DNA of 64,000 bases from Lactobacillus laiwuensis (GTDB taxonomy: Bacteria; Bacillota; Bacilli; Lactobacillales; Lactobacillaceae), in NCBI RefSeq assembly GCF_019972835.1, contig NZ_BPPB01000005.1, positions 186,001 to 250,000 of the forward strand, written 5' to 3'. Below, in pieces: positions 21,870 through 35,878 of this stretch. The notes under the pieces were generated by a model. The model searched no databases, had not been told where the DNA came from, and worked only from the letters and a program-made list of their open reading frames with translations. Every line of letters starts with the position of its first letter. The stretch's first letter is position 1. The translations under genes were made by a program, and so were the position numbers.

Positions 21870-23165
<1,296 letters not shown>

Positions 23166-23168
23166 TTT

Positions 23169-24464
23169 ATGCTGGAACGTTATACTCGCCCTGAAATGGG
23201 TAAAATATGGTCTGATGAAAATAAATACGAAGCATGGCTAAAAGTAGAAATTGCTGCTACCAATGCCTGGAGTGAATTAGGCGAAGTCCCAAAAGAAGAT
23301 GCTGCTAAAATTGCTCAAAATGCCAGCTTCACGCCAGAGCGGGTGGCAGAATTAGAGCAGGTAACTCATCATGACGTGGTTGCTTTTACACGAACAGTTT
23401 CTGAAAGCCTTGGACCTGAGAAAAAGTGGGTACACTTTGGGCTGACTTCGACGGATGTTGTTGATACGGCACAAGGATATATCTTAAAACAGGCAGATGC
23501 GATTATTCGTCAAGATCTGCACGAACTAAAAAAGACGATTGCTGAAAAAGCACGTAAATATAAAAATACGGTGGAAATGGGACGCACGCATGGTGTGCAA
23601 GCTGAACCCACTACTTTTGGCTTAAAACTAGCTCGCTGGTATGCGGAAATTAAGCGTGATATTGAACGCTTTGAACATGCAGCAAAAGGAGTAGAATCAG
23701 GAAAAATTTCCGGAGCCGTTGGGACTTTTGCTAACGTACCACCAGCTGTTGAAACCAGTGTCTTAAAGCAGCTAGGCTTAACTCAGCAGCCAATTACCAG
23801 CCAGGTATTGCCACGCGACTTACATGCCGAATATATTGCTACTTTGGCGTTAATAGCCACAAGTATTGAAAATTGGGCTACCGAAATTAGAAGTCTGCAA
23901 CGCTCTGAAATCCACGAAGTAGAAGAGCATTTCCGTGCAGGTCAAAAAGGTTCTTCAGCAATGCCTCACAAACGTAATCCTATTGGCTCAGAAAATCTTT
24001 GTGGTATGGCACGGGTTTTACGGGGTCATATTATAACTGCTTATGAGGATGTGTCACTTTGGCATGAACGCGATATTTCCCATTCTAGTGCTGAACGTGT
24101 AATTCTACCTGATACGACAATTGGTATTGATTATATGCTTGATCGTTTTAATCGCATTTTGACTAACCTTGATGTTTTTCCAGAAACAATGCTTAAGAAC
24201 ATGGATAAAACTTATGGTCTGATTTATTCCCAGCGCTTATTATTAAAACTGATTGATGAGGCTGGTCTTTCTCGTGAAGATGCTTATGATATGGTTCAGA
24301 AATTAACCACAAGATCTTGGAACGAAGGAATTTCCTTTAGAAAATTAGTTGAAAGCAGTTCAATCATGGACTATCTTTCAAAAGATGATGTAAGTGACGC
24401 ATTTGATTATCATTACCATTTGCGTCATGTTGACGAAATCTTTAAAAAAGTCGGTTTAGAATAA
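23169..24464 (+). CDS. purB: adenylosuccinate lyase
   Basis: Cleaves adenylosuccinate to AMP and fumarate, and acts on SAICAR in de novo synthesis. The fumarase-superfamily signature GSSAMPHKRNPIGSEN is intact, and TSTDVVDTA and GRTHGVQAEPTTFG supply other active-site residues. At 431 residues it has the usual length. It sits 3 bp after purA with only a weak own ribosome binding site. The fumarate it releases could serve the fumarate reductase-like enzyme encoded next, which is an inference from proximity. Confidence 0.96.
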   Translation: MLERYTRPEMGKIWSDENKYEAWLKVEIAATNAWSELGEVPKEDAAKIAQNASFTPERVAELEQVTHHDVVAFTRTVSESLGPEKKWVHFGLTSTDVVDTAQGYILKQADAIIRQDLHELKKTIAEKARKYKNTVEMGRTHGVQAEPTTFGLKLARWYAEIKRDIERFEHAAKGVESGKISGAVGTFANVPPAVETSVLKQLGLTQQPITSQVLPRDLHAEYIATLALIATSIENWATEIRSLQRSEIHEVEEHFRAGQKGSSAMPHKRNPIGSENLCGMARVLRGHIITAYEDVSLWHERDISHSSAERVILPDTTIGIDYMLDRFNRILTNLDVFPETMLKNMDKTYGLIYSQRLLLKLIDEAGLSREDAYDMVQKLTTRSWNEGISFRKLVESSSIMDYLSKDDVSDAFDYHYHLRHVDEIFKKVGLE

Positions 24465-24473
24465 ACAATTAGT

Positions 24474-24505
24474 AAAGCGGTTCACTTAATAGTGAGCTGC
24501 TTTTT
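24474..24505 (+). terminator. terminator of purA-purB
   Basis: A stem with arms TCACT/AGTGA extended by AAAGC/GCTTT (small mismatches), then a T-run. Confidence 0.8.
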
Positions 24506-24548
24506 GTCATGGAATTTAAATTGTTGATAAATAAAAAATGTAAGCGAT

Positions 24549-24568
24549 TATGTGATATTATTAACATA
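24549..24568 (+). promoter_or_regulatory. possible Rex-like operator upstream of the reductase
   Basis: TATGTGATATTATTAACATA is a near-palindrome resembling the Rex operator TTGTGA-N6-TCACAA, with one base off in the core TGTGA/TAACA pair. It lies about 90 bp before the reductase start. Confidence 0.3.
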
Positions 24569-24656
24569 AACACTAGATAATATTTAAAGGCTGAAAGGCA
24601 AAAATTTAAGTCTTTTAAGCTAAAATAAGATTCTTTTTTAAAAGAGGTAGTCAATT

Positions 24657-26468
24657 ATGATAGTTAATGAACATACATACTACGATGCAAGCTATGATGT
24701 AGTAGTCTTGGGCTTCGGTGGAGCCGGTGCGACCGCAGCTCGCTTTGCTGCTGATAGTGGTGCAAAAGTGCTGCTGGTTGATTCTGCACCGGAGGGTCAT
24801 GAAGGTGGTAATACAAGATATGCTGCTGAACTTGTAGGTTACAGTAGCAGCGAAGAGGATTATCGGTCCTACTATGAACATTTGGCACAACACTTTAATA
24901 TTGACCCTGAAATAGAAGACACAGTTGTTCATGGCATTACACACATGAAAGAATATTTCAAAAAGTACCTGGATGTTGCTAATCCCGTTAGCTATAAAAC
25001 CATTTTAGGATTGCCAGAAGACGCTGTAATAGCCGATCATCCTAATTTACCAGGTGCTAAAAGCTATGACATGATTACAATGGAGAAGGGTATTTTTAAC
25101 GCTTCTTTGTGGAACATTCTACGGCAAAAAGTATTGGATCGCAGTGATAAGATAGATGTTTGGTATTCTGCACCTGTTAAGCATATTCTCCAGACACCTG
25201 GTAGGAAAGTTGTGGGAGCCCAAATTGAACGTGACAATGTTTTATTAAATATTTATGCCAAAAATGGAGTAGTCTTAGCCACTGGTGGTATCGAAAATAA
25301 TCCACAAATGATCCAGGACTATATTGGCTCACACAAGTTGGTACCTTTGGGTTCACTTTATAATAAGGGTAAAGGCATTGACCTTGCTCACGAAGCAGGA
25401 GCAGATATGTGGCATATGTCAATGTATGCGGCCGGGGGAATGCAACAAGCTTTTGCTTTTTATGAACCTGGGATGAAGCGTGCACCATTTTATATGGGTA
25501 ACCCAATCTTCTATACAGGCAGTATTTTTACGGTTGGCGATGACGGCACACGCTACTTTAAGGAAGATCAAGGAGCACGTGAAGGCTATGTAGAAAATCA
25601 TGGTTCATGGTATAAACCATTGAATCCAATTCACCCTTACTTTGTCTTTGATCAAAAGCAATATGACAAGATCAGTGAGATTGATACTTTCCCTGATAAT
25701 AAAGCACTTAATTCCGTTCTTAAAGCTGATTCTGTTTCTGAATTAGCAGATAAGATGGGAGTTGCTGGGGATAAACTGCAAAGTACAATTGATGAATTTA
25801 ACTTCTTTGCCGAAAAGAAGCATGATTATGCTTATCATCGTGATCCTGCTACTTTAAGTGCATTTTCTGAAGCTGGTCCGTATTATGCCATACCGCTAGT
25901 ACAGACTATTGGCTGGTCTGAAGCTGGTCCTAGAAGAAATGCCCGCGCTGAAATTCTTGATCCTGAGCACAAACCAATTCCGCATTTGTATGGTGCCGGT
26001 GAGCTGGGCAGTAATATGTCTAACTTATATCAAGGTGGGTCCGATCTTGCGGACTGCTTGATTTTCGGTAAAATTGCCGGTCAAAATGCAGCTCATCCTA
26101 AAGACGATATCGCAGAAGTTAATGTACCTTCTCCTAAGCATGAAAAGCCGTTAAAGCCACGTCCACTTGCTTCTGATATTAAGAAAGAAGAATATCCGAC
26201 TGGCCCTGAACAATATATTGGTAAATCTACTAAAGGAATGGGAGATGAAATTGTTGTCAGGGTAACGGCCGATAAGCAAAAGAATCTCAAAAACATCGAA
26301 GTTCTGAAACAAGCTGAATCCGATGATTATGGTCAAAAGGCAATCAATGAATTACCAGCAAAAATGGTTAACGCAAATACAGTTGATGTCGATGCAATTT
26401 CTGGTGCCTCTAATACCACTAGAGGATTAAAAGACGCTGTGAGGGATGCATTAAGCAAAATTAAATAG
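24657..26468 (+). CDS. flavocytochrome-type fumarate/urocanate reductase with C-terminal FMN domain
   Basis: A 603-residue flavoprotein. The N-terminus has the FAD-binding VVVLGFGGAGATAARFAADSG motif, and the body is the fumarate reductase/succinate dehydrogenase flavoprotein fold with a C-terminal HLYGAGELGSN FAD motif. A short linker leads to an FMN-binding domain (about residues 520-603) ending in SGASNTT; by analogy with NqrC/UrdA-type proteins, Thr587 is the likely site of covalent FMN attachment by ApbE. There is no signal peptide, so it is probably a cytosolic, NADH-linked acceptor reductase. Fumarate is the simplest substrate; urocanate or other enoates are alternatives. AGAGGTAG precedes the ATG. 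A broken copy of its 3' part lies at 33.4 kb. Confidence 0.85.
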   Translation: MIVNEHTYYDASYDVVVLGFGGAGATAARFAADSGAKVLLVDSAPEGHEGGNTRYAAELVGYSSSEEDYRSYYEHLAQHFNIDPEIEDTVVHGITHMKEYFKKYLDVANPVSYKTILGLPEDAVIADHPNLPGAKSYDMITMEKGIFNASLWNILRQKVLDRSDKIDVWYSAPVKHILQTPGRKVVGAQIERDNVLLNIYAKNGVVLATGGIENNPQMIQDYIGSHKLVPLGSLYNKGKGIDLAHEAGADMWHMSMYAAGGMQQAFAFYEPGMKRAPFYMGNPIFYTGSIFTVGDDGTRYFKEDQGAREGYVENHGSWYKPLNPIHPYFVFDQKQYDKISEIDTFPDNKALNSVLKADSVSELADKMGVAGDKLQSTIDEFNFFAEKKHDYAYHRDPATLSAFSEAGPYYAIPLVQTIGWSEAGPRRNARAEILDPEHKPIPHLYGAGELGSNMSNLYQGGSDLADCLIFGKIAGQNAAHPKDDIAEVNVPSPKHEKPLKPRPLASDIKKEEYPTGPEQYIGKSTKGMGDEIVVRVTADKQKNLKNIEVLKQAESDDYGQKAINELPAKMVNANTVDVDAISGASNTTRGLKDAVRDALSKIK

Positions 26469-26496
26469 ACATTTATCAAGAATTTAATAAGTATTT

Positions 26497-26539
26497 AAAG
26501 CAGGTCATAAATTTGGTTAAAACTTATGACCTGCTTTTT
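26497..26539 (+). terminator. terminator of the reductase gene
   Basis: A perfect 13-bp stem (AAGCAGGTCATAA and its complement) followed by five T. Confidence 0.92.
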
Positions 26540-26648
26540 GTATTATGAACTTGGGGTAAAATTAAAAATTAACCTCATAATCATTAAACTGAAACTTTGT
26601 TTATGAATTTACCTAGAAATTTTGAAAAAGAAAGTGCTTTTAAAAAAT

Positions 26649-26677
26649 TTCTTAACCAAATAAGCTATATTTATAAC
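26649..26677 (+). promoter_or_regulatory. likely deoC promoter
   Basis: TTCTTA and TATAAC with 17-bp spacing, 30 bp upstream of the deoC start. Confidence 0.45.
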
Positions 26678-26706
26678 TACTTTATTTGCAGAAAAGGAGA
26701 AAAATA

Positions 26707-27360
26707 ATGGAAAAAATTAATAAATATATTGATCATACTTTATTGGAACCAAATGCAACTCAAGAGCAAATTAATAAGGTGATTGCAGAGGCTAAAAAAT
26801 ATCAATTTGCGTCTGTCTGTGTAAATCCTTTTTGGGTAAAATATGTTAGTGAAAAATTACAAGGAACAAAAATTAATACTGTAACGGTGATTGGCTTTCC
26901 CCTAGGAGCAACTACTACTGAAACTAAAGTTTTTGAAGCAACACAAGCAGTTGCCAATGGTGCCGATGAATGCGATATGGTACAAAACATCGGGGCGTTT
27001 CTTTCAGAAGACTATGATGTGGTACTTAAAGATGAAAAAGCAGTTATCGAAGCAGTACATTCAAAGGGAAAAAAGGTAAAAGTAATTCTTGAAAATTGTT
27101 TTCTTAATTCGCAGCAAATTAAAAAGGCATGCTTAATAGCAGAAAAATCTGGTGCTGATTTCGTCAAAACGTCAACTGGCTTTGCAAAATATGGAGCTAG
27201 AGCAGAAGATGTTAAGATTATGGCTGCAACTGTCGGAACTAAAATGGGCATCAAAGCAGCAGGCGGTATTCATACTAAAGCTGACGCTTGCCAAATGATT
27301 GCTAGTGGAGCTACTAGATTAGGGGCAAGTGCAAGTCTAAAAATTATAAAAGAATCGTAG
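26707..27360 (+). CDS. deoC: deoxyribose-phosphate aldolase
   Basis: Splits 2-deoxyribose 5-phosphate into acetaldehyde and glyceraldehyde 3-phosphate by a Schiff-base mechanism. Intact motifs are YIDHTLLEPNAT at the N-terminus, the EVDMV-like ADECDMVQNIG, and the catalytic lysine in FVKTSTGFAK; a second conserved lysine is in GIKAAGGI. The start is set at the ATG after AAAAGGAGAAAA, giving 217 residues, normal for the family. It has its own terminator, so it may not be part of the PTS operon that follows. With no deoxynucleoside phosphorylase in view, its substrate source (nucleosides or an imported sugar) is open. Confidence 0.95.
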   Translation: MEKINKYIDHTLLEPNATQEQINKVIAEAKKYQFASVCVNPFWVKYVSEKLQGTKINTVTVIGFPLGATTTETKVFEATQAVANGADECDMVQNIGAFLSEDYDVVLKDEKAVIEAVHSKGKKVKVILENCFLNSQQIKKACLIAEKSGADFVKTSTGFAKYGARAEDVKIMAATVGTKMGIKAAGGIHTKADACQMIASGATRLGASASLKIIKES

Positions 27361-27384
27361 TTTTAGCACAAAAATAAGTATGTA

Positions 27385-27426
27385 AAGAAGACACTGTGTT
27401 TGTTAATGCAAGGTGTCTTCTTTTTT
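27385..27426 (+). terminator. terminator of deoC
   Basis: GAAGACAC and GTGTCTTC arms with a T-run. Confidence 0.85.
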
Positions 27427-27517
27427 AGTGTAGTTTTTTGCAAAATTTTATTGAAAGCAGGTAGACTATGTGTCTTATTTTTCCAAAAAAAGTGGAAACA
27501 ATAAACTCTTTTTTATA

Positions 27518-27531
27518 TGTAAGCGGTAACG
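27518..27531 (+). promoter_or_regulatory. catabolite-responsive element (cre) of the PTS operon
   Basis: TGTAAGCGGTAACG matches the CcpA consensus TGWAANCGNTNWCA at 13 of 14 positions, 26 bp before the regulator start. This position favours repression when glucose is present. Confidence 0.7.
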
Positions 27532-27556
27532 TATTATTTGAATTGAGGTGAGGAAT

Positions 27557-29635
27557 ATGAAAGACCGGCAATTACTGATAATAAATGAATTGCTTGATAA
27601 AGAAAATTTATCAATCGCTGAATTGAGTCAAGCCTTGAATGTTTCTTCCAGAACTATCAGAAATGATGTGGATGATATTAACCGAACTTTAAGTGACCTT
27701 TCAATTACTGGAATTTCTAATAAGCGGGGACAACTTTATTTTTGTCTTGATTTGGACGCCAGACATTCCTTATCTCACTCTTTAAAAATTAGTTCGGATA
27801 CGTTTCTTGATCCTAGAGAAAGGCAGCTTCATATCATTATCAGCTTTCTAAAAGCTCCTCACCAGGTAAAAATTTATGAAGAACAAAAGCAGCTGAATAT
27901 AAGTAAAAGCACGATGGACAAGGATATGCGCCAGGTTAGAGAATTTCTTGCCAAATATTCTCTGACCTTGGATACGCAGCAAGGAGCAAAAATTGAAGGT
28001 GCTGAAAGAAATATCAGAACTATGATTCAACAATTAATTGTTGAAAATATTGATATTTCGCAATTAGCAGAAAAAGGCAGCTTTGAAGGAAGTGATAGTT
28101 ACCAAATAGTAATTGATTATTTAAATCCAAAGATACTTGAGCAAACTAATATAGTTGCTAAGGAACTAATACTTGGTGGTCGTTACGAAGGAGTTTCTGC
28201 CAGAGAAGCACAAATTTCTGTTTTAATGGCCATTTGGATTAGGCGTTTGCAGGAAAAGCAATATCTTGATGACAGTCAGGTTTCTAATTTAGAAATTGCT
28301 AACACTAGAATTATGAAATCTGTAAACAATTTGTTGGACAAGTTAAAACTGACAGTTCCGGAAAATGAAAAAAGCTATATGACTTTTATTCTTAAAACAT
28401 TTTTGGGTGAAAAAGAGGTAAGAATTGACAAATGGGCTGAATCGGAACTTCTGACTTTACGGTTAATAGATTATATGAGTGATATAGAAAAAATTAATTA
28501 CCGTGATTCGGAACAACTTTATGAACAACTTAACTCACATATTTCAGCATTTTTGCAAAGGCAAGAAAATCATATTGAAGTATTTAATCCGTTAACTGAT
28601 GTTCTTAAAACCAGCTATGCAACTATTTATCAAGATATCTCAGCTTTTTTTAAAAGCAAATACAGCAAAAACGTTTCGGCAGGAGAGAAAGCTTTCATAA
28701 CGGTTTACTTTAGTACTTATTATGAAGAAAGCGTCAAAGAAAACAACTTTTATAGAATTGCGGTTCTTTGTAATTATGGCGAAGCTACCGGTCAGCTATT
28801 GGCTGCCAATATTTCCCGAAACATGAATGTCGAAGTTGTGGCAGTTTTGGGATTACAAGATATAAATTCTTTAAGAAAGCTAAACATAGATTTTGTTGTT
28901 AAGACAATTAATGAATCAACGGGAATGGTTCCCAGTTTTAAAATGCCTCCTGTTCCCAGGAAGCAAGACTATCAAGAGTTAAAGAAATTTATTGCTAAAG
29001 CAGATATTAAAAAACATATGCTGTCTTTAAAGCAAAATCCTTCAGCTAAGAAAAATTTGCTTAAAGACACCATTTCGCTAATTGAATCAGAAACCAGAAA
29101 AAATGTTTCAGCTCGCTTAGTAGACAAGTTAATTGAAATTTTTTCTGAACATAATATTGAAATAAAAGAGAGGGAGGTGAGGCCAATGCTTCAAGATTTA
29201 TTAACTGATGACAAAATCCAAATACACATAATGGCTAATAATTGGTGTGAAGCGATTGAAAAAACCAGCCAACCGCTAATAAAAAATAAATCAATTAATG
29301 ATGATTATGTTGTCGCAATGGAAGAATCAGTTAAAAAATTCGGACCTTATATTGTCATAGGTCCTGGAATTGCTTTGGCCCATGCAAGACCGGAGGACGG
29401 GGTTGCAAAATTGGATGTCAGTGTAGCATCACTGGCTGAACCAATAAAATTTGGCAATAAGGCAAACGATCCAGTAAAAATCATTTTTGTTTTGTCTGCA
29501 ATTGACAGCTATTCACATTTAAACGTTTTAAAAGCAATTGTGGATTTAATAAATAAGCCAAATAAGATTGAAGAACTATTTAACAAGGAAGATAAAGCAA
29601 GCTTTAAAAAGACCTTGTTTGGCGTAGAAAATTAA
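27557..29635 (+). CDS. PRD-domain transcriptional regulator fused to a PTS EIIA domain
   Basis: A 692-residue regulator of the LicR/MtlR/ManR architecture. An N-terminal HTH (ELSQALNVSSRTIRNDVDDI, about residues 18-37) and a second HTH-like part around 100-150 come first. Two PRD domains (about 170-385) follow, then an EIIB-like segment with VLCNYGEATG (about 395-480). The C-terminal EIIA domain of the fructose/ascorbate type (about 540-690) has the phosphorylatable His609 in LAHARPEDG. GAGGTGAGG supports the ATG at 27557. The operon has no separate EIIA gene, so this domain may also feed phosphate to the IIB protein encoded next. Activation by PTS phosphorylation is expected from the family. 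Confidence 0.88.
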   Translation: MKDRQLLIINELLDKENLSIAELSQALNVSSRTIRNDVDDINRTLSDLSITGISNKRGQLYFCLDLDARHSLSHSLKISSDTFLDPRERQLHIIISFLKAPHQVKIYEEQKQLNISKSTMDKDMRQVREFLAKYSLTLDTQQGAKIEGAERNIRTMIQQLIVENIDISQLAEKGSFEGSDSYQIVIDYLNPKILEQTNIVAKELILGGRYEGVSAREAQISVLMAIWIRRLQEKQYLDDSQVSNLEIANTRIMKSVNNLLDKLKLTVPENEKSYMTFILKTFLGEKEVRIDKWAESELLTLRLIDYMSDIEKINYRDSEQLYEQLNSHISAFLQRQENHIEVFNPLTDVLKTSYATIYQDISAFFKSKYSKNVSAGEKAFITVYFSTYYEESVKENNFYRIAVLCNYGEATGQLLAANISRNMNVEVVAVLGLQDINSLRKLNIDFVVKTINESTGMVPSFKMPPVPRKQDYQELKKFIAKADIKKHMLSLKQNPSAKKNLLKDTISLIESETRKNVSARLVDKLIEIFSEHNIEIKEREVRPMLQDLLTDDKIQIHIMANNWCEAIEKTSQPLIKNKSINDDYVVAMEESVKKFGPYIVIGPGIALAHARPEDGVAKLDVSVASLAEPIKFGNKANDPVKIIFVLSAIDSYSHLNVLKAIVDLINKPNKIEELFNKEDKASFKKTLFGVEN

Positions 29636-29656
29636 TAGAGTTAGGAGCGTAAAAAT

Positions 29657-29962
29657 ATGGCAAAAGTACCTACAGTTTTCTTTATTTGCGGCAATGGCTT
29701 GGGCTCAAGTTTAGCTTGTCAGATGGAAGCTGATGATGTTTTTAGTGAAGCAGGTATTGAAGTTAATTCAGATCATGATTCAATTTCAGATGCACCTTCA
29801 CTTAATGCCGATATTATTGTCTCGGCAAGTAATTTTGAATCTCAATTTGCCAATATGCAGATTGATCCCAAAACCAAATTTGTCTATTTAGACAACATCG
29901 TTGATAAAGACGAAATTAAAGCAAAAGTTTTACCAGTTGTGAAACAAATTGCAGACAGTTAA
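29657..29962 (+). CDS. PTS IIB component, ascorbate/galactitol type
   Basis: 101 residues. The phosphocysteine lies in VFFICGNGLGSSLACQM (Cys11). The protein matches the SgaB/UlaB-like IIB fold in length and motif. It accepts phosphate from EIIA and passes it to the incoming sugar. GGAGCG precedes the ATG, 21 bp after the regulator. The real substrate is unknown; the IIC encoded next is ascorbate-family. Confidence 0.87.
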   Translation: MAKVPTVFFICGNGLGSSLACQMEADDVFSEAGIEVNSDHDSISDAPSLNADIIVSASNFESQFANMQIDPKTKFVYLDNIVDKDEIKAKVLPVVKQIADS

Positions 29963-29985
29963 GTTTATAAAAAGGAGTGAGAGAA

Positions 29986-31317
29986 ATGGTCGTTATTCAA
30001 TGGATAATTAACAATATCCTTACTCAGGCAGCAATTTTAATTTCATTAATTGCGATGCTGGGATTGATATTACAAGGTAAAAAAATAGGAGCGGTCATCA
30101 GTGGTACGCTTAAAACTTTGCTTGGGTTTGAAGTTTTGTCCGCTGGTTCCACAATTATTCAACAAAGTTTGGCTTATTTTGCAGTAATTTTTCAGCATGG
30201 ATTTCACACAAAAGGTATTGTCCCTAGTATTGAAGCCATTAATGGCCAGGCAATGAATAAGTTGGGTTTAGGTAATAGTATTGCCTTAACTCTTTTAGGT
30301 ATTTTCATTGTAAACATTATCATAGCCAGATTTACTAAATGGAAATATGTCTTTTTAACCGGACAAGCTTTATTATGGATGGCAACTATGACTGTTATTG
30401 GTGGTCACTTTGCCGGCTTAAAAGGTTTTCCGTTAATCTTAATGGGCAGTATTATAGGTGGTATTTTTGCTATTGCAATGCCGGCATTAGCGCAACCGAT
30501 TGTTCGTAAAATTACTGGCAGCAATGCAATTGCCCTTGGTCACTTTTGTACAATTGGATATCTAGTTGAAGCTGGCGTAGCCTGGCTAGTCAGAGATCGT
30601 AAAGTTGATCAACATGTAACTAACATTAAGGAAAGAACAGATTCTTGGGAACACGTTAAGCTTCCTAAGAGTATGTCATTTTTACAGGATAATTCCCTTT
30701 CTATTATGGTAGTAATGGTTCCTTTATACATTATTACTGCTGCTTTTGCTGGTCCTTACTGGTCTATTAAAGCTGCCGGGGGAGCTGCGGGAGGCGTAAA
30801 CTACATTATTTATGCCTTTTTACAAGCTATTCAATTTACAGTTGGTGTTTATGTAATGCTTTCAGGGGTTCGTTTGATGTTAGGTGAAATTGTTCCTGCC
30901 TTTCGTGGTATTGCTATGAAGGTAGTTCCTAATTCAGTACCTGCTCTTGACTGTCCAGTTTTATTCCCATATTCACCAAATGCAGTTATTATTGGCTTCA
31001 TAACGACAACTATTGGGACAGTGATTGGCATGTTCTTATCCCCATTAGTAGGACTAGCAGTTATCTTGCCAGGTATGACTACCAATTTCTTTGCGGGCGG
31101 TACTGCAGGAATCTTTGGTAATGCAATTGGTGGCAAACGTGGTGCCATCGTTGGTGGTATTGCACATGGTTTATTTATTACCTTGCTTCCAGCACTTTTA
31201 GTTGGCGCTTTATCATCAGTTGGCTTTGTCAACGCCACAGCTACAGATGTTGATACTATTACCGCTGCTTTATTATATCTGTGGGTTATTGCACCGGCCT
31301 TTCATGCCTTTGGCTAA
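29986..31317 (+). CDS. PTS IIC permease, ascorbate (UlaA/SgaT) family
   Basis: A membrane channel for a PTS sugar, 443 residues with about ten hydrophobic segments. The order of segments and blocks such as GALGKIIL-like LQGKKIGAVISGTLKTLLGF and VPALDCPVLFPYSPNAVIIGF agree with the UlaA/SgaT group, which lacks the covalently fused IIB seen in other families. The ATG at 29986 follows AAAGGAG at the right distance; an upstream GTG would overlap that site. By family knowledge this group transports L-ascorbate, but homologues in lactobacilli serve other ligands. No ulaD/ulaE/ulaF ascorbate enzymes accompany it. Confidence 0.88.
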   Translation: MVVIQWIINNILTQAAILISLIAMLGLILQGKKIGAVISGTLKTLLGFEVLSAGSTIIQQSLAYFAVIFQHGFHTKGIVPSIEAINGQAMNKLGLGNSIALTLLGIFIVNIIIARFTKWKYVFLTGQALLWMATMTVIGGHFAGLKGFPLILMGSIIGGIFAIAMPALAQPIVRKITGSNAIALGHFCTIGYLVEAGVAWLVRDRKVDQHVTNIKERTDSWEHVKLPKSMSFLQDNSLSIMVVMVPLYIITAAFAGPYWSIKAAGGAAGGVNYIIYAFLQAIQFTVGVYVMLSGVRLMLGEIVPAFRGIAMKVVPNSVPALDCPVLFPYSPNAVIIGFITTTIGTVIGMFLSPLVGLAVILPGMTTNFFAGGTAGIFGNAIGGKRGAIVGGIAHGLFITLLPALLVGALSSVGFVNATATDVDTITAALLYLWVIAPAFHAFG

Positions 31318-31338
31318 TTACTTTGGAGGTGTTTAATA

Positions 31339-31776
31339 ATGTCGTTTTGGTCGAAAATTTTTAAATCAAATGCAACGGAAAGTAATTCAGCTGCGGATAA
31401 AGAAACTAATGAAACAAGCAGCCAATTAACAGATGATGAAAAGCAACAGATCAAGAGTCAAATCAAAGACTTAACTGAACAACTTAATGACAATGACTCA
31501 GAATCAGTAGCAAGTAATAAACAAAAGGCCACTATTTTAACCCAGTTAGGGCAGAACTATCAAGAGTTGGGTAATGTTGATGATGCTATTGATGCTTATG
31601 AAAAAAGCTTGAAACTCAACGAGGATTTTGGTCCTGCTTTTGATGGTTTGCTTAAACTTTATGATAGTAAACGGCAAAAAGCTGCTTATGCTAAAAATAA
31701 TGATGAAATACAAAAATGGCTCAACAAAGGTGACGAATTGACGGCATTATCTAAAAAAATAATGCGTTCTAAATAA
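31339..31776 (+). CDS. small TPR-repeat protein
   Basis: 145 residues, no signal peptide. A polar Ser/Asn/Asp-rich N-terminal third is followed by a TPR-like pair: ILTQLGQNYQELGNVDDAIDAYEKSLKLNEDFGPAFDGL (residues about 68-107) has the W-L-G-Y-A-F-A-P spacing pattern of a TPR. The remainder is charged and helical. GGAGGTG precedes the ATG. It lies inside the PTS operon between IIC and the aldolase. TPR proteins act as protein-binding scaffolds; what it binds here is unknown. Confidence 0.75.
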   Translation: MSFWSKIFKSNATESNSAADKETNETSSQLTDDEKQQIKSQIKDLTEQLNDNDSESVASNKQKATILTQLGQNYQELGNVDDAIDAYEKSLKLNEDFGPAFDGLLKLYDSKRQKAAYAKNNDEIQKWLNKGDELTALSKKIMRSK

Positions 31777-31820
31777 ATTTCTGGATTATATAGTTGAGAT
31801 TAACAATTAAAGGAGAAAAA

Positions 31821-32663
31821 ATGGCTTATAAAACGTTAAAAGAAGTACTAAAAGAAGCAGAAGAAATGGATTTCACAGTTGGTGCTTTTAATGCTCATAA
31901 CTTGGAAATGGTTCCGGCTATGATTGAAGCTGCGCACGAAGAAGGTGCTCCTATTATTATTCAAACTTCTGTTGGTACGGCTGATACGGAGGGAATGAGA
32001 AACTTTGTAGCTGTTTGCAAAAGCATGGCAGAACACGAAGCAGTAGATGTTGTGCTCCACTTAGATCATGCCCGTGATATTAAAGACATTGAAAGGGCAA
32101 TTGCAGCCGGATACAGTTCGGTTATGTTTGACGGTTCATTACTTTCATTTAAGGAAAACATTGCCAAAACTAAGCGAGTTGTAGAATATGCCCATAAACG
32201 CGGTGTCTCAGTTGAGGGTGAAATTGGAACGATCGGTGGAACTGAAGAGGGTTTTACCGTTAAAGAAGGAAACTATACTCGTCCTGAAGATGCTATTAAA
32301 TTCTTGCAAGAATGTGACGTTGATGCCTTAGCTGTCGGCGTTGGTACACATCACGGGCAATTTCAATCTAAAACCGAATTGAACTTCCCACTTATTGAAG
32401 AATTGCATAGTAAACTGGATAAGCCAATGGTTATTCATGGTGGAACGGGAGTTAACGAGGAAGATTACCATAGACTGACCGAAAATGGTATTCGCAAGTT
32501 TAATGTCGGTACTGAACTATTAGTTTCATGGACGAAGAAAGCAAAAGAGATGTTTGGCAAAACAGAAGTTAATGAATCTCTGAGAAATAACATTATTCCA
32601 TGTAACGAAAGCGTTCATAACATTATTAAACATAAAATTGAATTATTCATGAATAAAGGGTGA
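31821..32663 (+). CDS. class II (zinc) fructose-bisphosphate/tagatose-bisphosphate-type aldolase
   Basis: 280 residues of the GatY/KbaY/FbaA superfamily. The zinc ligands are in VLHLDHA (catalytic-side histidine with the adjacent aspartate), GVGTHHG and MVIHGGTG, with substrate-phosphate binding by the GGTG loop. AAAGGAGAAAA fixes the ATG. It cleaves a ketose 1,6-bisphosphate or similar to DHAP and an aldehyde. Its position behind a PTS and next to a small P-loop kinase suggests a catabolic role distinct from glycolytic FBA. Sequence alone does not discriminate fructose, tagatose or another bisphosphate. Confidence 0.88.
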   Translation: MAYKTLKEVLKEAEEMDFTVGAFNAHNLEMVPAMIEAAHEEGAPIIIQTSVGTADTEGMRNFVAVCKSMAEHEAVDVVLHLDHARDIKDIERAIAAGYSSVMFDGSLLSFKENIAKTKRVVEYAHKRGVSVEGEIGTIGGTEEGFTVKEGNYTRPEDAIKFLQECDVDALAVGVGTHHGQFQSKTELNFPLIEELHSKLDKPMVIHGGTGVNEEDYHRLTENGIRKFNVGTELLVSWTKKAKEMFGKTEVNESLRNNIIPCNESVHNIIKHKIELFMNKG

Positions 32664-32668
32664 TCTCG

Positions 32669-33277
32669 TTGAAAAAAACGATGTTGCTTTTAGCCGGCTG
32701 TCCTGGCACCGGCAAATCTTACTTGGCAAAACTGATATGCGAGGCCATTCCTGATTATTTTAATGAGGTTTCTATAGATCTGTTTAAAGAACAGCTTTAT
32801 GAAAGTAAAGGTTTTGATAATCCGTCTGAAAAAACAGAGTTAGATAATCAAGCATATAATATGTTTTACCAAAAAGTCGCAAGCTTTATGCAAAAAGGTC
32901 AATCAATTATTTCTGATTACCCATTTTCCTATCGTCAGCACGATACCTTAGAAAAATTAGCTAACAAGTATCATTTTCAAGTAATTACAATTACGCTGAC
33001 CTGTGATTCAGACATTTTATATGAAAGGCAAAGAAAACGTGATCTGGATCCTGATCGTCCTTTAGGATTCATAATGAACCATTATCATAAAGGTGATACT
33101 TTGACCGACAGGACAAAAATGGATATTCAAAAAACAAAACAGGAATTTGAAAGTTTTAATAAAAAAAGGGGATATTCAACTTTTACATTAGGTAAAACAA
33201 TTTTTCTTAATGTTTCTGATTTTAGTAAAGTTGATTATGACGGTACAATTGTTAAGCTAAAAAGCTGGGTCAACTAG
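32669..33277 (+). CDS. P-loop kinase (AAA_33/zeta-like), probable sugar or metabolite kinase
   Basis: 203 residues. Walker A GCPGTGKS lies at residues 10-17, and an RQRKRDLDPDRP basic lid-like region is near 120. Walker B-like IISDYP is in the middle. The TTG start after AAAGGGTGAT gives the best ribosome binding site; the upstream GTG overlaps the aldolase stop. The protein is in the AAA_33/ZETA P-loop kinase group, not PfkB. Being last in the operon after the aldolase, it may phosphorylate the PTS product to the bisphosphate the aldolase needs; this is inference. Alternatively it is a tRNA/RNA kinase-like or toxin-like protein. Confidence 0.75.
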   Translation: MKKTMLLLAGCPGTGKSYLAKLICEAIPDYFNEVSIDLFKEQLYESKGFDNPSEKTELDNQAYNMFYQKVASFMQKGQSIISDYPFSYRQHDTLEKLANKYHFQVITITLTCDSDILYERQRKRDLDPDRPLGFIMNHYHKGDTLTDRTKMDIQKTKQEFESFNKKRGYSTFTLGKTIFLNVSDFSKVDYDGTIVKLKSWVN

Positions 33278-33326
33278 GTACAAATTTACTTCTTAAATAT
33301 TTTGTTTAATATTCATTTAAAAATAG

Positions 33327-33367
33327 TATTTTAGCCGTATTTCGTATTAAAACGAATTACGGCTTTT
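33327..33367 (+). terminator. terminator of the PTS operon, repeat copy 1
   Basis: AGCCGTATTTCG pairs with CGAATTACGGCT (one mismatch) around an eight-base loop, then four T. An almost identical copy lies exactly 1140 bp downstream at 34467. Confidence 0.8.
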
Positions 33368-33369
33368 GT

Positions 33370-33615
33370 GGTTCGGATTTGGGCGACTGTTTGATTTTCG
33401 GTAAAATTGCCGGTCAAAATGCAGCTCATCCTAAAGACGATATCGCAGAAGTTAATGACCTTCTCCTAAGCATGAAAAGCCGAAAGCCACGACCACTAGA
33501 TTCTGATATTAAGAAAGAAGAGTTTTCAACTGGGTCTGAACAATATATCGGCAAATCTACTAAAGGAATGGGGGATGAAATAGTTGTCAGAGTAACAGCC
33601 GATAAGCAAAAGAAT
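33370..33615 (+). pseudogene. 3' fragment of a second fumarate reductase-like gene
   Basis: The DNA follows the reductase gene at 26040-26285 closely, with small deletions and substitutions. It encodes the GDCLIFGKIAGQNAAHP block and the start of the FMN domain (STKGMGDEIVVRVTADKQKN). It has no upstream two-thirds and no SGASNTT flavinylation end. A single-base deletion near 33460 changes the frame before DLLLSMKS, and the reading frame returns at SRKPRPLDSD. The fragment joins the end of an IS3-type transposase at about 33615. It cannot make a reductase. Confidence 0.85.
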
Positions 33616-33710
33616 CAAAATCAAACTAAAAGGACTAACTCCGCTTGAATATCGTCAGTTAGTCCTCAGTTAATAGCTAATATAAAGTGTCCTAATTTTA
33701 GGGTTCACAT
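33615..33710 (+). mobile_element. remnant 3' end of an IS3-family element
   Basis: In one frame the DNA from 33615 encodes IKIKLKGLTPLEYRQLVLS and then stops at 33673, the classical C-terminus of IS3-family OrfB transposases (YNN-R-x-LKGLTPxEYR). About 15 bp later, GTGTCCTAATTTTAGGGTTCA resembles the right inverted repeat of such elements (GTCC-AATTTT-GGGTTCA). Only the tail is left. The insertion probably explains why the adjoining reductase copy is truncated. Confidence 0.75.
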
Positions 33711-33749
33711 CAAACTCAGTGCCTTTTTCATACTTGTCCTTGTTGTTCT

Positions 33750-34067
33750 CTACCACATAAATTTCTTAAGATTATTTAAATCAGTTACCGTTAAGTAACC
33801 AATACCTTTTAGTCTTGTTTTATCAATTCTTAGCTGATAACGCTTATTACAGTCTATCCATGATTCCTTGTTAAGGCCAGACTTTTGCCAATCGGTAATT
33901 TTAGCATACTTTGCGCGAATGTGTTTCGATTTATTCTGATATTTACTGGTAATTTTAAATACATAATAAAATTCATCATCCTGCTCAATATATAAAACTG
34001 GCCGACTTTTTCCGTTTGGTACATCTTCGTATTCAAGGTATGTTATAAAAATATCGCCCAAATTCAT
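33750..34067 (-). CDS. type II toxin, PemK/MazF-like
   Basis: 105 residues beginning MNLGDIFITYLEYEDVPNGKSRPVLYI, which matches the GDI-x-x-x-x-x-x-G-x-x-RP-x-x-V pattern of MazF/PemK-like endoribonucleases. The remainder is shorter and more divergent than MazF, so nuclease activity is an inference. It begins 12 bp after the antitoxin stop on the same strand; GGAGACCAG precedes the ATG. An RNA interferase that inhibits growth unless the antitoxin binds it is the expected role. Confidence 0.7.
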   Translation of the reverse strand: MNLGDIFITYLEYEDVPNGKSRPVLYIEQDDEFYYVFKITSKYQNKSKHIRAKYAKITDWQKSGLNKESWIDCNKRYQLRIDKTRLKGIGYLTVTDLNNLKKFMW

Positions 34068-34079
34068 TAACTGGTCTCC

Positions 34080-34352
34080 TTAATCTGCGAAAAAGTCAGC
34101 TATTTCTTTAGAGGTTTCGACCTTTTGTGCAGGAATTTTACGACTAGCTGCAATAATTTCATCTTTTAGATGGTCATAGTCATCAACTGAAAATGCTACA
34201 GGTAGTTTGCCTTTGTCAGCAATCTGTGTAAGCATCATTGAAATCACATCATTAGGTTTAAGACCAATTTTTCTAATAACTAGCTCTGCTGTATCAGCTA
34301 TTTGTTTGTCTATATTAACAGAATATCTTTTAGTAACAATCTTAGTTGCCAT
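34080..34352 (-). CDS. RelB/DinJ-family antitoxin
   Basis: 90 residues. The N-terminal stretch ATKIVTKRYSVNIDKQIADTAELVIRKIGL is the ribbon-helix-helix DNA-binding region of RelB/DinJ antitoxins, and the C-terminus (residues 50-90) would wrap the toxin. It is first in the operon, as is normal for type II systems. Two palindromic operators lie just upstream at 34402 and 34434, fitting autoregulation. RelB/DinJ antitoxins usually pair with RelE/YafQ toxins; this one is next to a PemK-like toxin, so the pairing is unusual. Confidence 0.8.
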   Translation of the reverse strand: MATKIVTKRYSVNIDKQIADTAELVIRKIGLKPNDVISMMLTQIADKGKLPVAFSVDDYDHLKDEIIAASRKIPAQKVETSKEIADFFAD

Positions 34353-34401
34353 AATTTGCCTCCCAAAATTATTTTATTACATAAATAATATCATAAAATT
34401 A

Positions 34402-34422
34402 CCTAAAATAGCATATTTTAGG
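34402..34422 (-). promoter_or_regulatory. palindromic operator 1 of the toxin-antitoxin operon
   Basis: A perfect 9-bp inverted repeat, CCTAAAATA and TATTTTAGG, around a 3-bp centre, 50 bp upstream of the antitoxin start. Confidence 0.75.
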
Positions 34423-34433
34423 CACTTTTTGTA

Positions 34434-34450
34434 AATTTTAGTCTAAAATT
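34434..34450 (-). promoter_or_regulatory. palindromic operator 2 of the toxin-antitoxin operon
   Basis: A perfect 8-bp inverted repeat, AATTTTAG and CTAAAATT, around one base. It shares the CTAAAAT half-site with operator 1; centres are 30 bp apart. Confidence 0.7.
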
Positions 34451-34466
34451 GTCTTAAATAAAACCA

Positions 34467-34507
34467 TATTTTAGCCGTATTTCATATTAAAGCGAATTAC
34501 GGCTTTT
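34467..34507 (+). repeat. hairpin direct repeat copy 2
   Basis: Matches the 33327-33367 hairpin at all but about two positions over 38 bases and can also form a terminator (AGCCGTATTTCA/CGAATTACGGCT arms plus T-run). Confidence 0.85.
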
Positions 34508-34551
34508 TAAGTGCTCTTGAATTTTTTGTTTTCTTCTGAATCAAAAAAATA

Positions 34552-34610
34552 TGCCACTTGGTTTCTTATAATTGCCACTTAGTCAAAAGTGCTAGATTTT
34601 ACATTAAAAT
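34552..34610 (+). promoter_or_regulatory. LytTR-type direct repeat and promoter
   Basis: TGCCACTT occurs at 34552-34559 and again at 34573-34580, a 21-bp period (two helical turns). A candidate -10 box TAAAAT (34605-34610) has only a poor -35 region, which the second repeat adjoins. This arrangement fits an activator-dependent promoter bound by the LytTR protein encoded just downstream. Confidence 0.6.
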
Positions 34611-34655
34611 AAGCGTTTAATTAAATCATCAAGTGATGAAGGGCAGGTGAGAAGC

Positions 34656-35117
34656 GTGAAAATAAAAATAGAACTGAATCCGGATATGGAAGATGACGAT
34701 ACCAGTGTAACAATTCATGCTAAATCTGTGACGCCAGAAGTTGAACAGATATACCGACAGTTGCAAGGTATCAGTGAACATCCTGACCAAATAGAAGGCA
34801 AAAAAGATAATGTGTCCTATTACTTGAGCATGAATGAGATTTTATTTTTTGAAACAGAAGATAAACAGGTGATTGCACATACTGCCAAGGATGCCTTTAC
34901 CGTAGACTACAAACTCTATGAACTAGAAAATTTGTTAAATAATCAGTTCATGCGGGTATCTAAGTCAACAATTTTAAATTTAAATCAAATTTATGCGTTA
35001 ACACGTTCGATTTCTAACTGTAAGATTAATTTTCGCGATTCTTATAAAACTGTCTATGTTTCACGTCACTACTATCACAATTTGAATGATAGGTTAAACG
35101 AGAGAAGGTCATCATAA
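34656..35117 (+). CDS. LytTR-family DNA-binding regulator
   Basis: 153 residues. The C-terminal 95 residues form a LytTR domain: YYLSMNEILFFETEDKQVIAHT, then MRVSKSTILNLNQI, typical of AlgR/AgrA/LytR DNA-binding proteins. The N-terminal 55 residues are acidic and do not look like a receiver domain, so the protein is not a classical two-component regulator. The GTG at 34656 follows AGGTGAG; an earlier GTG overlaps that site. The next gene starts at its stop codon. It probably autoregulates through the direct repeat at 34552. Confidence 0.85.
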   Translation: MKIKIELNPDMEDDDTSVTIHAKSVTPEVEQIYRQLQGISEHPDQIEGKKDNVSYYLSMNEILFFETEDKQVIAHTAKDAFTVDYKLYELENLLNNQFMRVSKSTILNLNQIYALTRSISNCKINFRDSYKTVYVSRHYYHNLNDRLNERRSS

Positions 35118-35878
35118 TGAAAAAATTTAAACTTAGAGAAGTATTTTGGGGCATTGCTCTAGTAGCAGCTGCCGTATTCTTAGTCCTTAATCAGCTGCAT
35201 CTGCTTTCATTTCATTTAAAAGTAAGCATGATTATTTGGACGATAATATTCGGAGCAGCACTGATCGAAAGCGTGGCTAATAAAAGTTTGTTTGGTACAA
35301 CTTTTTCCATTGCCTTTTTATTAATTGTTTACGCTGAACCCTTGCATATTACCAAAATTGTACCGTGGACGGTCTTAGTGGCGGCGTTATTAATTTATTT
35401 AGGCTTAACGCTGATTTTTAAGAGAAGCTGGTTTCCCAGGATAGTCTATTTTAACCAGAAAAAAGACGGCAAATGGAAGAACTTTAGCAATAATCGCTCA
35501 AGAATTGATAATAACGTATTCAGTAGCGGTACTGGAAAAGTTGATGGAGAAGATATAGTAATCAATCAGCGCTTATCATCAGTTTCGCGTTACGTTCATT
35601 CACAAAATTTACGCAGTATAACAATTAATTCTTCTTTGGGTGAAGTTGAAGTCTACCTTGATCAGGCTAAAGCTGCAGGCGATGTAGTGACCGTTGACAT
35701 TAGTGGCACTATGGGTGAGATTGAAATTTACGTTCCAACTTCATGGAAAGTCAACAGTGATAACTTAAACCTAGCTCTGGGAGAATTGGATATTAATGAC
35801 GAATCTACCGGTGACGGTCCTACATTAATGCTAACTGGGCATTTCAGCATGGGTGATGTGGAAGTTAATTATATTTAA
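35117..35878 (+). CDS. LiaF-like membrane protein
   Basis: 253 residues. The N-terminal 110 residues contain about four hydrophobic helices; the C-terminal half is a beta-rich repeat with the LiaF signature (SSLGEVEVYLDQ, MGEIEIYVP, LALGELDIN and FSMGDVEVNYI). In B. subtilis LiaF restrains the LiaRS cell-envelope stress system. Here the partner is a LytTR regulator rather than a histidine kinase, and the two genes overlap, so the membrane protein may sense envelope state for the LytTR protein. That role is inference. Confidence 0.8.
   Translation: MKKFKLREVFWGIALVAAAVFLVLNQLHLLSFHLKVSMIIWTIIFGAALIESVANKSLFGTTFSIAFLLIVYAEPLHITKIVPWTVLVAALLIYLGLTLIFKRSWFPRIVYFNQKKDGKWKNFSNNRSRIDNNVFSSGTGKVDGEDIVINQRLSSVSRYVHSQNLRSITINSSLGEVEVYLDQAKAAGDVVTVDISGTMGEIEIYVPTSWKVNSDNLNLALGELDINDESTGDGPTLMLTGHFSMGDVEVNYI

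What the first reader, a model, noticed from the sequence alone, without database searches (positions are those of the whole stretch)
27518..33367. Uncharacterised PTS, TPR, aldolase and kinase operon with regulator-fused EIIA
Genes in order: PRD regulator carrying an EIIA domain, ascorbate-family IIB and IIC, a TPR protein, a class II aldolase and an AAA_33-type P-loop kinase, under a cre. None of the ascorbate enzymes (UlaD/E/F/G) is present. The combination suggests import of an unknown sugar as a monophosphate, phosphorylation by a non-PfkB kinase and splitting by the aldolase. The kinase is an unusual choice for this step, and the TPR protein has no known role.
Basis: partly seen in the sequence, partly recalled or inferred. 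Interest (0 to 1): 0.75.

Follow-up and report, generated by a model that had tools for sequence, protein, structure and literature searches.

The report
Orphan PTS ketose-bisphosphate operon, unknown sugar
A tightly conserved six-gene operon in many gut and food bacteria probably imports an unidentified sugar, phosphorylates it twice (the second time with an unusual kinase) and splits it into glycolytic fragments, so it points to a sugar-use pathway that still has to be identified.

Summary
PRD-EIIA, IIB, IIC, TPR, class II aldolase (ALD) and P-loop kinase (KIN) form one unit with a conserved operator and cre in front. The six functions recur together at 68 of 86 distinct KIN loci (62 with the regulator-fused EIIA). 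Hosts include Enterococcus, Vagococcus, Tetragenococcus, lactobacilli, Bacillaceae, Anaerostipes, a Coriobacteriaceae MAG and Gilliamella. It is patchy: 7 of 75 genomes of the window's genus have KIN. In five loci ALD and KIN occur with a mannose-type PTS and no TPR. So ALD-KIN is the catabolic pair and TPR goes with the IIC. Best model: PTS-made ketose phosphate, second phosphate from KIN, cleavage by ALD to DHAP plus an aldose phosphate. ALD keeps the Arg found in bisphosphate aldolases (76 of 76). The window genome shows neither transaldolase nor transketolase, which favours a C6 ketose. DeoC is near or fused to KIN at 6 of 86 loci, yet one block-bearing genome has no DeoC, so it is accessory and unexplained. 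Against the model: a PfkB kinase lies at seven KIN loci. No sugar is assigned. It is a new variant of PTS ketose-bisphosphate pathways, with an apparently uncharacterised kinase subfamily.

The parts
26707..27360 (+). deoC, deoxyribose-phosphate aldolase; a separately terminated neighbour, linked to the module in several lineages
   Evidence: TIGR00126 250.6 bits against a cut-off of 117.3; fused to KIN in L010, next to KIN in L014
27384..27423 (+). hairpin plus T run, terminator of deoC
   Evidence: -18.4 kcal/mol, z -5.6
27477..27502. palindromic operator, family consensus about TTTTTGCA-N8-TTGCAAMAAT (read by eye); probable site of the PRD regulator. A weaker second copy lies at 27435-27460
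   Evidence: motif found in 42 of 62 homologous upstream regions at 15 bits or more against 0.31 in shuffles; best hit on the + strand of the 64 kb window, 21.2 bits, next 16.1
27517..27531 (+). cre (CcpA site)
   Evidence: 1 mismatch; conserved in relatives
27548..29635 (+). PRD/Mga-type regulator with C-terminal EIIA (likely start ATG 27557)
   Evidence: HTH_11, Mga, PRD, PTS_EIIA_2; EIIA His612 and PRD His331 invariant in 69 of 69 long regulators
29657..29962 (+). EIIB
   Evidence: PTS_IIB; Cys11 in 75 of 75
29977..31317 (+). EIIC of the EIIC-GAT / L-ascorbate family
   Evidence: PF03611 2.6e-114; NF009551 669 bits against a cut-off of 657
31339..31776 (+). small TPR protein with an aromatic/Lys N-terminus
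   Evidence: TPR_1; alignment of 29; model pLDDT 83
31821..32663 (+). class II ketose-bisphosphate-type aldolase (ALD)
   Evidence: PF01116 4e-88; catalytic Asp, Zn His residues and Arg255 in 76 of 76 ALDs over 250 aa
32660..33277 (+). AAA_33/CPT-type P-loop kinase (KIN)
33333..33364 (+). hairpin after KIN, probable terminator of the unit
   Evidence: folded stretch z -4.3

Best explanation
A self-contained PTS catabolic operon for one ketose, probably of six carbons, that is not ascorbate. [quoted passage not shown] IIC imports the sugar and releases it phosphorylated at one end. KIN phosphorylates the other end. ALD splits the ketose bisphosphate into DHAP and an aldose phosphate (glyceraldehyde 3-phosphate if the sugar has six carbons), which enter glycolysis. 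The regulator senses PTS flux through PRD His331 and its own EIIA domain and acts at the palindrome 27477-27502; CcpA acts at the cre. The TPR protein is best read as a partner of IIC, perhaps a membrane-side scaffold. Shown: gene content, conserved grouping, operator and cre conservation, active-site residues, TPR-IIC and ALD-KIN co-occurrence. Inferred: every reaction step, the sugar's size, the direction of regulation, and the TPR role.
For: All six functions at 68 of 86 distinct KIN loci. All 18 genomes (of 198) with an IIC at least 68% identical are also KIN-positive. ALD-KIN persists with a mannose-type PTS in 5 loci. EIIA is a separate gene in five blocks (L014, L015, L018, L023, L037), which fits a working EIIA. 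ALD Arg255 is present in 76 of 76 cluster ALDs over 250 aa, in KbaY, GatY and one further own-genome aldolase (L103, taken by eye for the housekeeping FBA), but is Leu in YdjI, annotated for a monophosphate substrate; that this Arg binds the distal phosphate is recalled. EIIA His 69 of 69 and IIB Cys 75 of 75. The own genome has no transaldolase match, and its best transketolase hit is 34 bits against a cut-off of 682, so products other than triose phosphates would have no obvious outlet. Precedents: the PTS-kinase-GatY tagatose route (PMC10101011, abstract and passages) and the regulator-EIIA-driven asc-type PTS proposed in pneumococcus (PMC3302838, passages).
Against: A PfkB kinase lies at seven KIN loci (co-directional in L015, L018, L023, L027, L037; on the other strand about 7 kb away in L009, L028), so KIN may not be the step that makes the bisphosphate. 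Fold matches to KIN rank tRNA and polynucleotide kinases above PFKFB. deoC linkage is not explained. In L041 a GmhA-like gene (179 bits, below the cut-off of 209) stands in the place of TPR, and in G209 the block sits inside an ascorbate gene set next to transaldolase and transketolase genes; both would fit other sugar sizes.
Confidence: 0.55

Rival explanations
1. The sugar is a heptulose or pentulose. The PTS makes a 7- or 5-phosphate, KIN makes the 1,7- or 1,5-bisphosphate, and ALD splits it (sedoheptulose 1,7-bisphosphate gives DHAP and erythrose 4-phosphate).
For: All 8 fetched clusters of the sister IIC (about 42-46% identical; 8 of 47 such hits were fetched) carry transketolase, one (L137) with a transaldolase-family gene and one (L138) with two GmhA-like genes; a further one, on G209 contig C56, also has transaldolase and transketolase. 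The pneumococcal asc-type PTS with split transketolase is proposed for ketopentoses (PMC3302838, passages). L041 combines a GmhA-like gene with ALD-KIN. Kinase plus aldolase replaces transaldolase in clostridia (PMC7029132, abstract and passages).
Against: The window genome and G890 show neither transaldolase nor a real transketolase hit, and G049 lacks transketolase, so erythrose 4-phosphate would be stranded.
Confidence: 0.15
2. ALD acts on a ketose 1-phosphate made by the PTS, giving DHAP and a free aldehyde, and KIN phosphorylates that aldehyde (a glyceraldehyde-type kinase).
For: It would explain why a PfkB kinase and KIN coexist in seven loci.
Against: ALD keeps the Arg shared by bisphosphate aldolases and missing in YdjI (76 of 76).
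Confidence: 0.12
3. The pathway handles a deoxy sugar, or a sugar metabolised together with deoxyribose, and DeoC is a real step.
For: KIN-DeoC fusion in L010; DeoC at 5 further of 86 KIN loci; deoC plus ribokinase beside the block in L131 (found by a DeoC search, so not counted); G102's only DeoC is the fused one.
Against: 80 of 86 loci show no DeoC within 9 kb on the same strand, short contigs included. G066 carries the block (L012) and no DeoC match. The window deoC has its own terminator and no copy of the PRD operator (4.1 bits, rank 161). Of ten loci fetched for window-like DeoCs in the genus, six (L123-L128) have it beside a gene read by eye as deoB.
Confidence: 0.13
4. The substrate is ascorbate or one of its breakdown products.
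For: IIC is of the L-ascorbate family. In G209 the block lies between ulaA-F and ulaG.
Against: That genome already has its own ulaABC there; no UlaD/E/F/G hit in the window; the known ascorbate route needs no bisphosphate aldolase. One locus of 86.
Confidence: 0.05

Closest known systems
D-tagatose PTS pathway of Bacillus licheniformis (PTS, TagK, GatY) and the galactitol/GalNAc pathways with GatY/KbaY
   Same: PTS uptake to a monophosphate, a second kinase step, class II ketose-bisphosphate aldolase
   Different: TagK is of the PfkB type (recalled); here the kinase is AAA_33/CPT-type, the IIC is of the ascorbate family, and a TPR protein is present; no GatZ/KbaZ-like gene was seen in the block (gene list). 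ALD is only 31-33% identical to KbaY/GatY and has Gly230 where they have Ala
Pneumococcal SP2129-30 asc-type PTS with split transketolase (proposed ketopentose system) and the sister clusters L132-L139
   Same: Regulator carrying EIIA, then IIB, then ascorbate-family IIC (PMC3302838, passages)
   Different: Transketolase in place of TPR-ALD-KIN; IIC only about 42-46% identical. That SP2129-30 itself belongs to the sister group is inferred from its gene order, not aligned
L-ascorbate (ula) system
   Same: IIC family; IIB and IIA type
   Different: No UlaD/E/F/G; bisphosphate-type aldolase and kinase instead
Sedoheptulose 1,7-bisphosphate pathway of cellulolytic clostridia
   Same: Kinase plus aldolase acting on a ketose phosphate (PMC7029132, abstract and passages)
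   Different: Uses pyrophosphate-dependent PFK within the pentose phosphate pathway; no dedicated PTS is part of it (recalled)
2rhm putative kinase, chloramphenicol phosphotransferase and PFKFB (P-loop kinases)
   Different: 12-20% sequence identity for those named; the [DE]YPFS motif is invariant in the 32 KINs aligned and was not looked for in the others

Membership tests
L-ascorbate (ula) operon | IIC of the ascorbate PTS family | tested here: met
   PF03611 2.6e-114; UlaA 4rp8 is the best solved relative, 4.2e-33
L-ascorbate (ula) operon | UlaD/E/F/G enzymes in the cluster | tested here: not met
   no tblastn hit in the window at E 1e-3
PTS ketose-bisphosphate (tagatose/fructose-like) pathway | class II aldolase with catalytic Asp, three Zn His and a distal-phosphate Arg | tested here: met
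   76 of 76 cluster ALDs over 250 aa; the roles of the residues are recalled
PTS ketose-bisphosphate (tagatose/fructose-like) pathway | PfkB- or PfkA-type kinase in the operon | tested here: not met
   the window kinase is AAA_33/CPT; PfkB is present at seven other KIN loci
PTS ketose-bisphosphate (tagatose/fructose-like) pathway | enzyme activity on a ketose bisphosphate | not testable with these tools
   needs assay
TBP aldolase GatY/KbaY equivalog | NCBIfam cut-off for TIGR01858 or NF009375 | tested here: not met
   223.9 against 443.55 and 167.3 against 542 bits
Class II FBA equivalog (TIGR01859) | score over the cut-off | tested here: not met
   272.8 against 343.05 bits; over the cut-off for the broad subfamily TIGR00167, 240.3 against 215.6
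AAA_33 P-loop kinase | Walker A and family score | tested here: met
   47.9 against 27 bits; GxPxTGK invariant in 32 of 32
6-phosphofructo-2-kinase (PFKFB) | same fold and close kinship | tested here: inconclusive
Deoxyribose catabolism (deo) | DeoC | tested here: met
   TIGR00126 over the cut-off, as a separately terminated neighbour
Deoxyribose catabolism (deo) | ribokinase/deoxyribokinase gene beside deoC in the window | tested here: not met
   none among the 15 window proteins of 21876-35878 given to Pfam; a ribokinase lies beside the block in L131
Deoxyribose catabolism (deo) | dedicated deoxyribose transporter | not tested
   no transporter of that kind was searched for by family

The most novel reading that the evidence does not exclude
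KIN founds a class of AAA_33-type ketose-phosphate kinases (functional analogues of 1-phosphofructokinase or PFK on an unrelated fold) dedicated with its aldolase partner to a sugar for which no bacterial uptake route is known, and the TPR protein tethers this pair to the PTS permease for channelling. In some lineages KIN is fused to DeoC, so that a second, acetaldehyde-yielding cleavage is built into the pathway.
Probability: 0.3. Interest if true: 0.8.

Novelty: new variant of a known kind. Interest (0 to 1): 0.58.

Why it matters
The same six functions recur together in Lactobacillales, Bacillaceae, Lachnospiraceae, a Coriobacteriaceae MAG and bee-gut Gilliamella, which implies a common sugar in gut, food and insect niches whose use is not annotated. 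If the kinase step is right, it adds an unrelated enzyme family to the sugar-phosphate kinases and gives annotations such as 'AAA family ATPase' and 'tetratricopeptide repeat protein' a testable pathway. The operator and cre give a direct readout for finding the sugar.

Tried and rejected
Heptulose reading: attractive because the sister IIC clusters carry transketolase (8 of 8 fetched, of 47 hits) and GmhA-like genes occur in L138 and L041. Lowered because the window genome shows no transaldolase and no real transketolase hit.

deoC as an operon member: rejected for the window. It has its own terminator and no operator copy (rank 161), and G066 has the block without a DeoC match. Lineage-wise linkage remains unexplained. 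L122 and L131 came from a search with DeoC and are not used as counts.

The neighbouring fumarate-reductase-like gene (24657-26468) as part of the system: rejected. L122 (KIN 94% identical) has block and deoC without it and without the downstream fragment.

Transketolase-like genes (cluster c13) in L033, L036, L038, L039 first looked like a link. Read by eye they look like DXS among housekeeping genes. The split transketolase near L017 and L066 is separated from the block by one or two other genes (L078, same layout, not read in detail), so none was counted.

Single-window cre statistics were not significant; only the cross-genome count was. The sigma-70 scan was at chance, 26 against 25.8. 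The TPR fold search gave only generic TPRs, none at E 0.001 or better. Literature: searches returned no paper; some searches returned listings in which I saw nothing on this cluster, only background. led to PMC10101011, to PMC3302838 and to PMC7029132, of which I saw abstract and/or passages only. The phylum-level sample found KIN only in the own genome (1 of 398) although named loci exist in other groups, so such samples are thin. On plasmids KIN was found in 10 Enterococcus and 1 Vagococcus records. The IIC tree has a very long UlaA branch and was used only to see that the module's IICs group together.

What entered the locus count: of 11 plasmid records 4 were fetched and 3 mapped (L008, decayed, was left out); of the order-level rows two contig-edge fragments (G333, G475) were not fetched; L098 had only a 67-residue KIN remnant and dropped out. 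That leaves 91 loci; 5 with a KIN identical to another (L063, L071, L081, L087, L092) were removed, leaving 86. The 86 are distinct sequences, not independent lineages. Of them 68 have all six functions; 6 of these 68 do not have one long regulator-EIIA gene (L014, L015, L018, L023, L037 with a separate EIIA; L045 with the regulator in three ORFs and a KIN of 149 aa). Others: 5 man-type, 1 GmhA-like variant (L041), 2 with TPR not called as a separate ORF (L011, L067; in L011's genome a TPR is seen by tblastn), 5 distant KIN homologues under 35%, 5 contig-edge or decayed (L058, L064, L096, L097, L099). Operator and cre counts used 62 upstream regions left from 75 after removal of near-identical ones.
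Full report
What is there. The window lies in a 2.05 Mb Lactobacillaceae-like draft genome (44 contigs, 99.9% complete; the family is inferred from named relatives). Six co-directional genes run from 27548 to 33277: a PRD/Mga regulator with C-terminal EIIA, IIB, IIC of the EIIC-GAT/ascorbate family, a small TPR protein, a class II aldolase (ALD) and an AAA_33/CPT-type P-loop kinase (KIN). ALD and KIN overlap by 4 nt. A hairpin follows KIN. It missed deoC (26707-27360), which lies upstream and ends in its own strong terminator.

Conservation. A scan of species genomes (37 loci), an order-level sample (52 of 395 genomes with KIN), plasmids (11 records, 3 mapped) and a family sample (5 of 151) gave 91 mapped KIN loci, 86 after removal of identical KINs. 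All six functions lie together at 68 of 86. In 62 of the 68 the EIIA is fused to a long regulator as in the window; in five it is a separate gene (L014, L015, L018, L023, L037) and in L045 the regulator is in three ORFs. The other 18: 5 with a mannose-type PTS, 1 with a GmhA-like gene in the place of TPR (L041), 5 distant KIN homologues below 35% identity, 7 partial. Named hosts of the block include Enterococcus, Vagococcus, Tetragenococcus, Ligilactobacillus, Liquorilactobacillus, Domibacillus, Terribacillus, Metabacillus, Anaerostipes, a Coriobacteriaceae MAG and Gilliamella. In the window's own genus 7 of 75 genomes have KIN, a patchy pattern that suggests gain and loss; a phylum-wide sample had none beyond the own genome (1 of 398). 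Of 198 order-level genomes, 18 have an IIC at least 68% identical, and all 18 are KIN-positive; the other IIC hits fall to 42-46% and belong to a different cluster. G176 goes the other way: a 67-residue KIN remnant with only the distant IIC.

What goes with what. In the five mannose-type loci (L009, L026, L027, L028, L070) ALD and KIN sit with zinc and SDR dehydrogenase genes and a GntR gene and without TPR (family search on L027's genes only). So ALD-KIN is the catabolic pair that can be moved to another transporter, and TPR belongs with this IIC. TPR proteins share a conserved second half and, in 54 of 68 by a simple pattern, an aromatic/Lys-rich start. The model is an ordinary helical TPR with a low-confidence N-terminus (pLDDT 83). 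A scaffold at the membrane is my inference, not shown.

Active sites. The EIIA His and one PRD His (69 of 69 long regulators, duplicates included) and the IIB Cys (75 of 75) are invariant, so the PTS chain looks complete with the regulator as its EIIA; the same idea was proposed for a pneumococcal asc-type PTS (PMC3302838, passages only). In ALD the catalytic Asp, three Zn His, the Asn of the phosphate loop and Arg255 are kept in 76 of 76 proteins over 250 aa. Arg255 is also in E. coli KbaY and GatY and in one further own-genome class II aldolase (L103), but is Leu in YdjI, annotated for a monophosphate, and Asn or Val in two other own-genome aldolases. I recall, and no call shows, that this Arg holds the distal phosphate. 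Gly230 is a signature of the module (76 of 76; Ala in KbaY/GatY, Asn in L103). ALD stays below the NCBIfam cut-offs for both FBA and tagatose-bisphosphate aldolase equivalogs.

Control region. A 26-nt palindrome found by motif fitting occurs at 15 bits or more in 42 of 62 homologous upstream regions against 0.31 in shuffles; refits on 8 shuffled sets reach 8.0-8.9 bits per sequence against 16.3. The copy at 27477-27502 is the best site on the + strand of the 64 kb window. The cre at 27517-27531 is conserved too (42 of 62 against 6.6 by chance), though inside this window alone it is not above chance. Orthologous promoters are related, so these ratios overstate independence. In L131 and L014 the motif gave no strong site at the block.

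deoC. DeoC is within 9 kb on the same strand at 5 of 86 loci (WIN, L014, L023, L037, L045) and fused to KIN in L010, that is 6 of 86. With 0-2 DeoC matches over the cut-off in most of the ten genomes examined, up to 3, I estimate about one expected by chance; this is a hand estimate. L045's lies in a group that I read by eye as phosphoketolase, epimerase and isomerase genes. L131 has deoC plus a ribokinase (375 against a cut-off of 300 bits) beside the block but was found by DeoC. Against a required role: G066 has the block and no DeoC match; G102's only DeoC is the fused one. The window deoC carries no copy of the operator. I have no satisfying mechanism.

Which sugar. The sister IIC clusters that I fetched all carry transketolase (8 of 8, of 47 hits), one with a transaldolase-family gene and one with two GmhA-like genes; the published proposal for the pneumococcal one is ketopentoses. 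That would suggest C5 or C7 sugars for this family, and kinase-plus-aldolase can stand in for transaldolase (PMC7029132, abstract and passages). But the window genome and G890 have no transaldolase match (13 of 23 KIN-bearing genomes tested have none) and no transketolase hit above 34 bits. There, only a six-carbon ketose gives two products with an obvious outlet. I therefore favour a rare ketohexose. Other carriers do have transketolase or transaldolase, so this argument holds for the window's organism and not for all. In G209 the block lies between ulaA-F and ulaG, tal and tkt: one case, with its own ulaABC.

Weak points. A PfkB kinase lies at seven KIN loci (five co-directional, two on the other strand about 7 kb away), so the division of labour between KIN and PfkB is open. 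No reaction has been tested. The fusion was seen in one assembly.

Surroundings. The genes before the flavoprotein gene are adenylosuccinate synthetase and lyase; those after the operon include a RelB-type antitoxin, LytTR and LiaF-like genes. The flavoprotein gene upstream (24657-26468) has an 83% identical partial copy just after the terminator (33379-33648). L122, whose block is 94-99% identical, lacks both, so they are probably later events around the operon and not part of it.

Noticed in passing
24657-26468 and 33379-33648: A fumarate-reductase-like flavoprotein gene and an 83% identical partial copy flank the deoC-operon segment; a close relative (L122) lacks both.
   Followed up: partly
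33750-34352, minus strand: Two small ORFs; the first-transcribed (34080-34352) matches RelB antitoxin, the other (105 aa) has no Pfam match but looks like its toxin partner by position. Absent from L122 at this place.
   Followed up: partly
L132-L139: Sister clusters PRD-EIIA (or separate EIIA), IIB, IIC with split or whole transketolase, once with a transaldolase-family gene, once with two GmhA-like genes; I saw no sugar assigned beyond the published ketopentose proposal for a pneumococcal cluster of like order.
   Followed up: partly
L009, L026, L027, L028, L070: Mannose-type PTS variant with ALD, KIN, a zinc dehydrogenase, an SDR and GntR, in three of five with a PfkB kinase nearby: perhaps a second unassigned sugar cluster built on the same aldolase-kinase pair.
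   Followed up: partly
L010:8781-10040 (-): Kinase and DeoC in one 419-aa open frame with almost no linker; it is that genome's only DeoC match.
   Followed up: partly
L008: Decayed copy of the block on an E. faecalis plasmid amid transposase-like ORFs; described only.
   Followed up: no
L054 and L141 (G209): The block sits inside an ascorbate gene set: ulaA-F upstream, ulaG, transaldolase and transketolase downstream.
   Followed up: yes
L006, L007, L009: In E. raffinosus and E. gilvus the block or its man-type variant lies on plasmid records of about 0.9-1.2 Mb.
   Followed up: no
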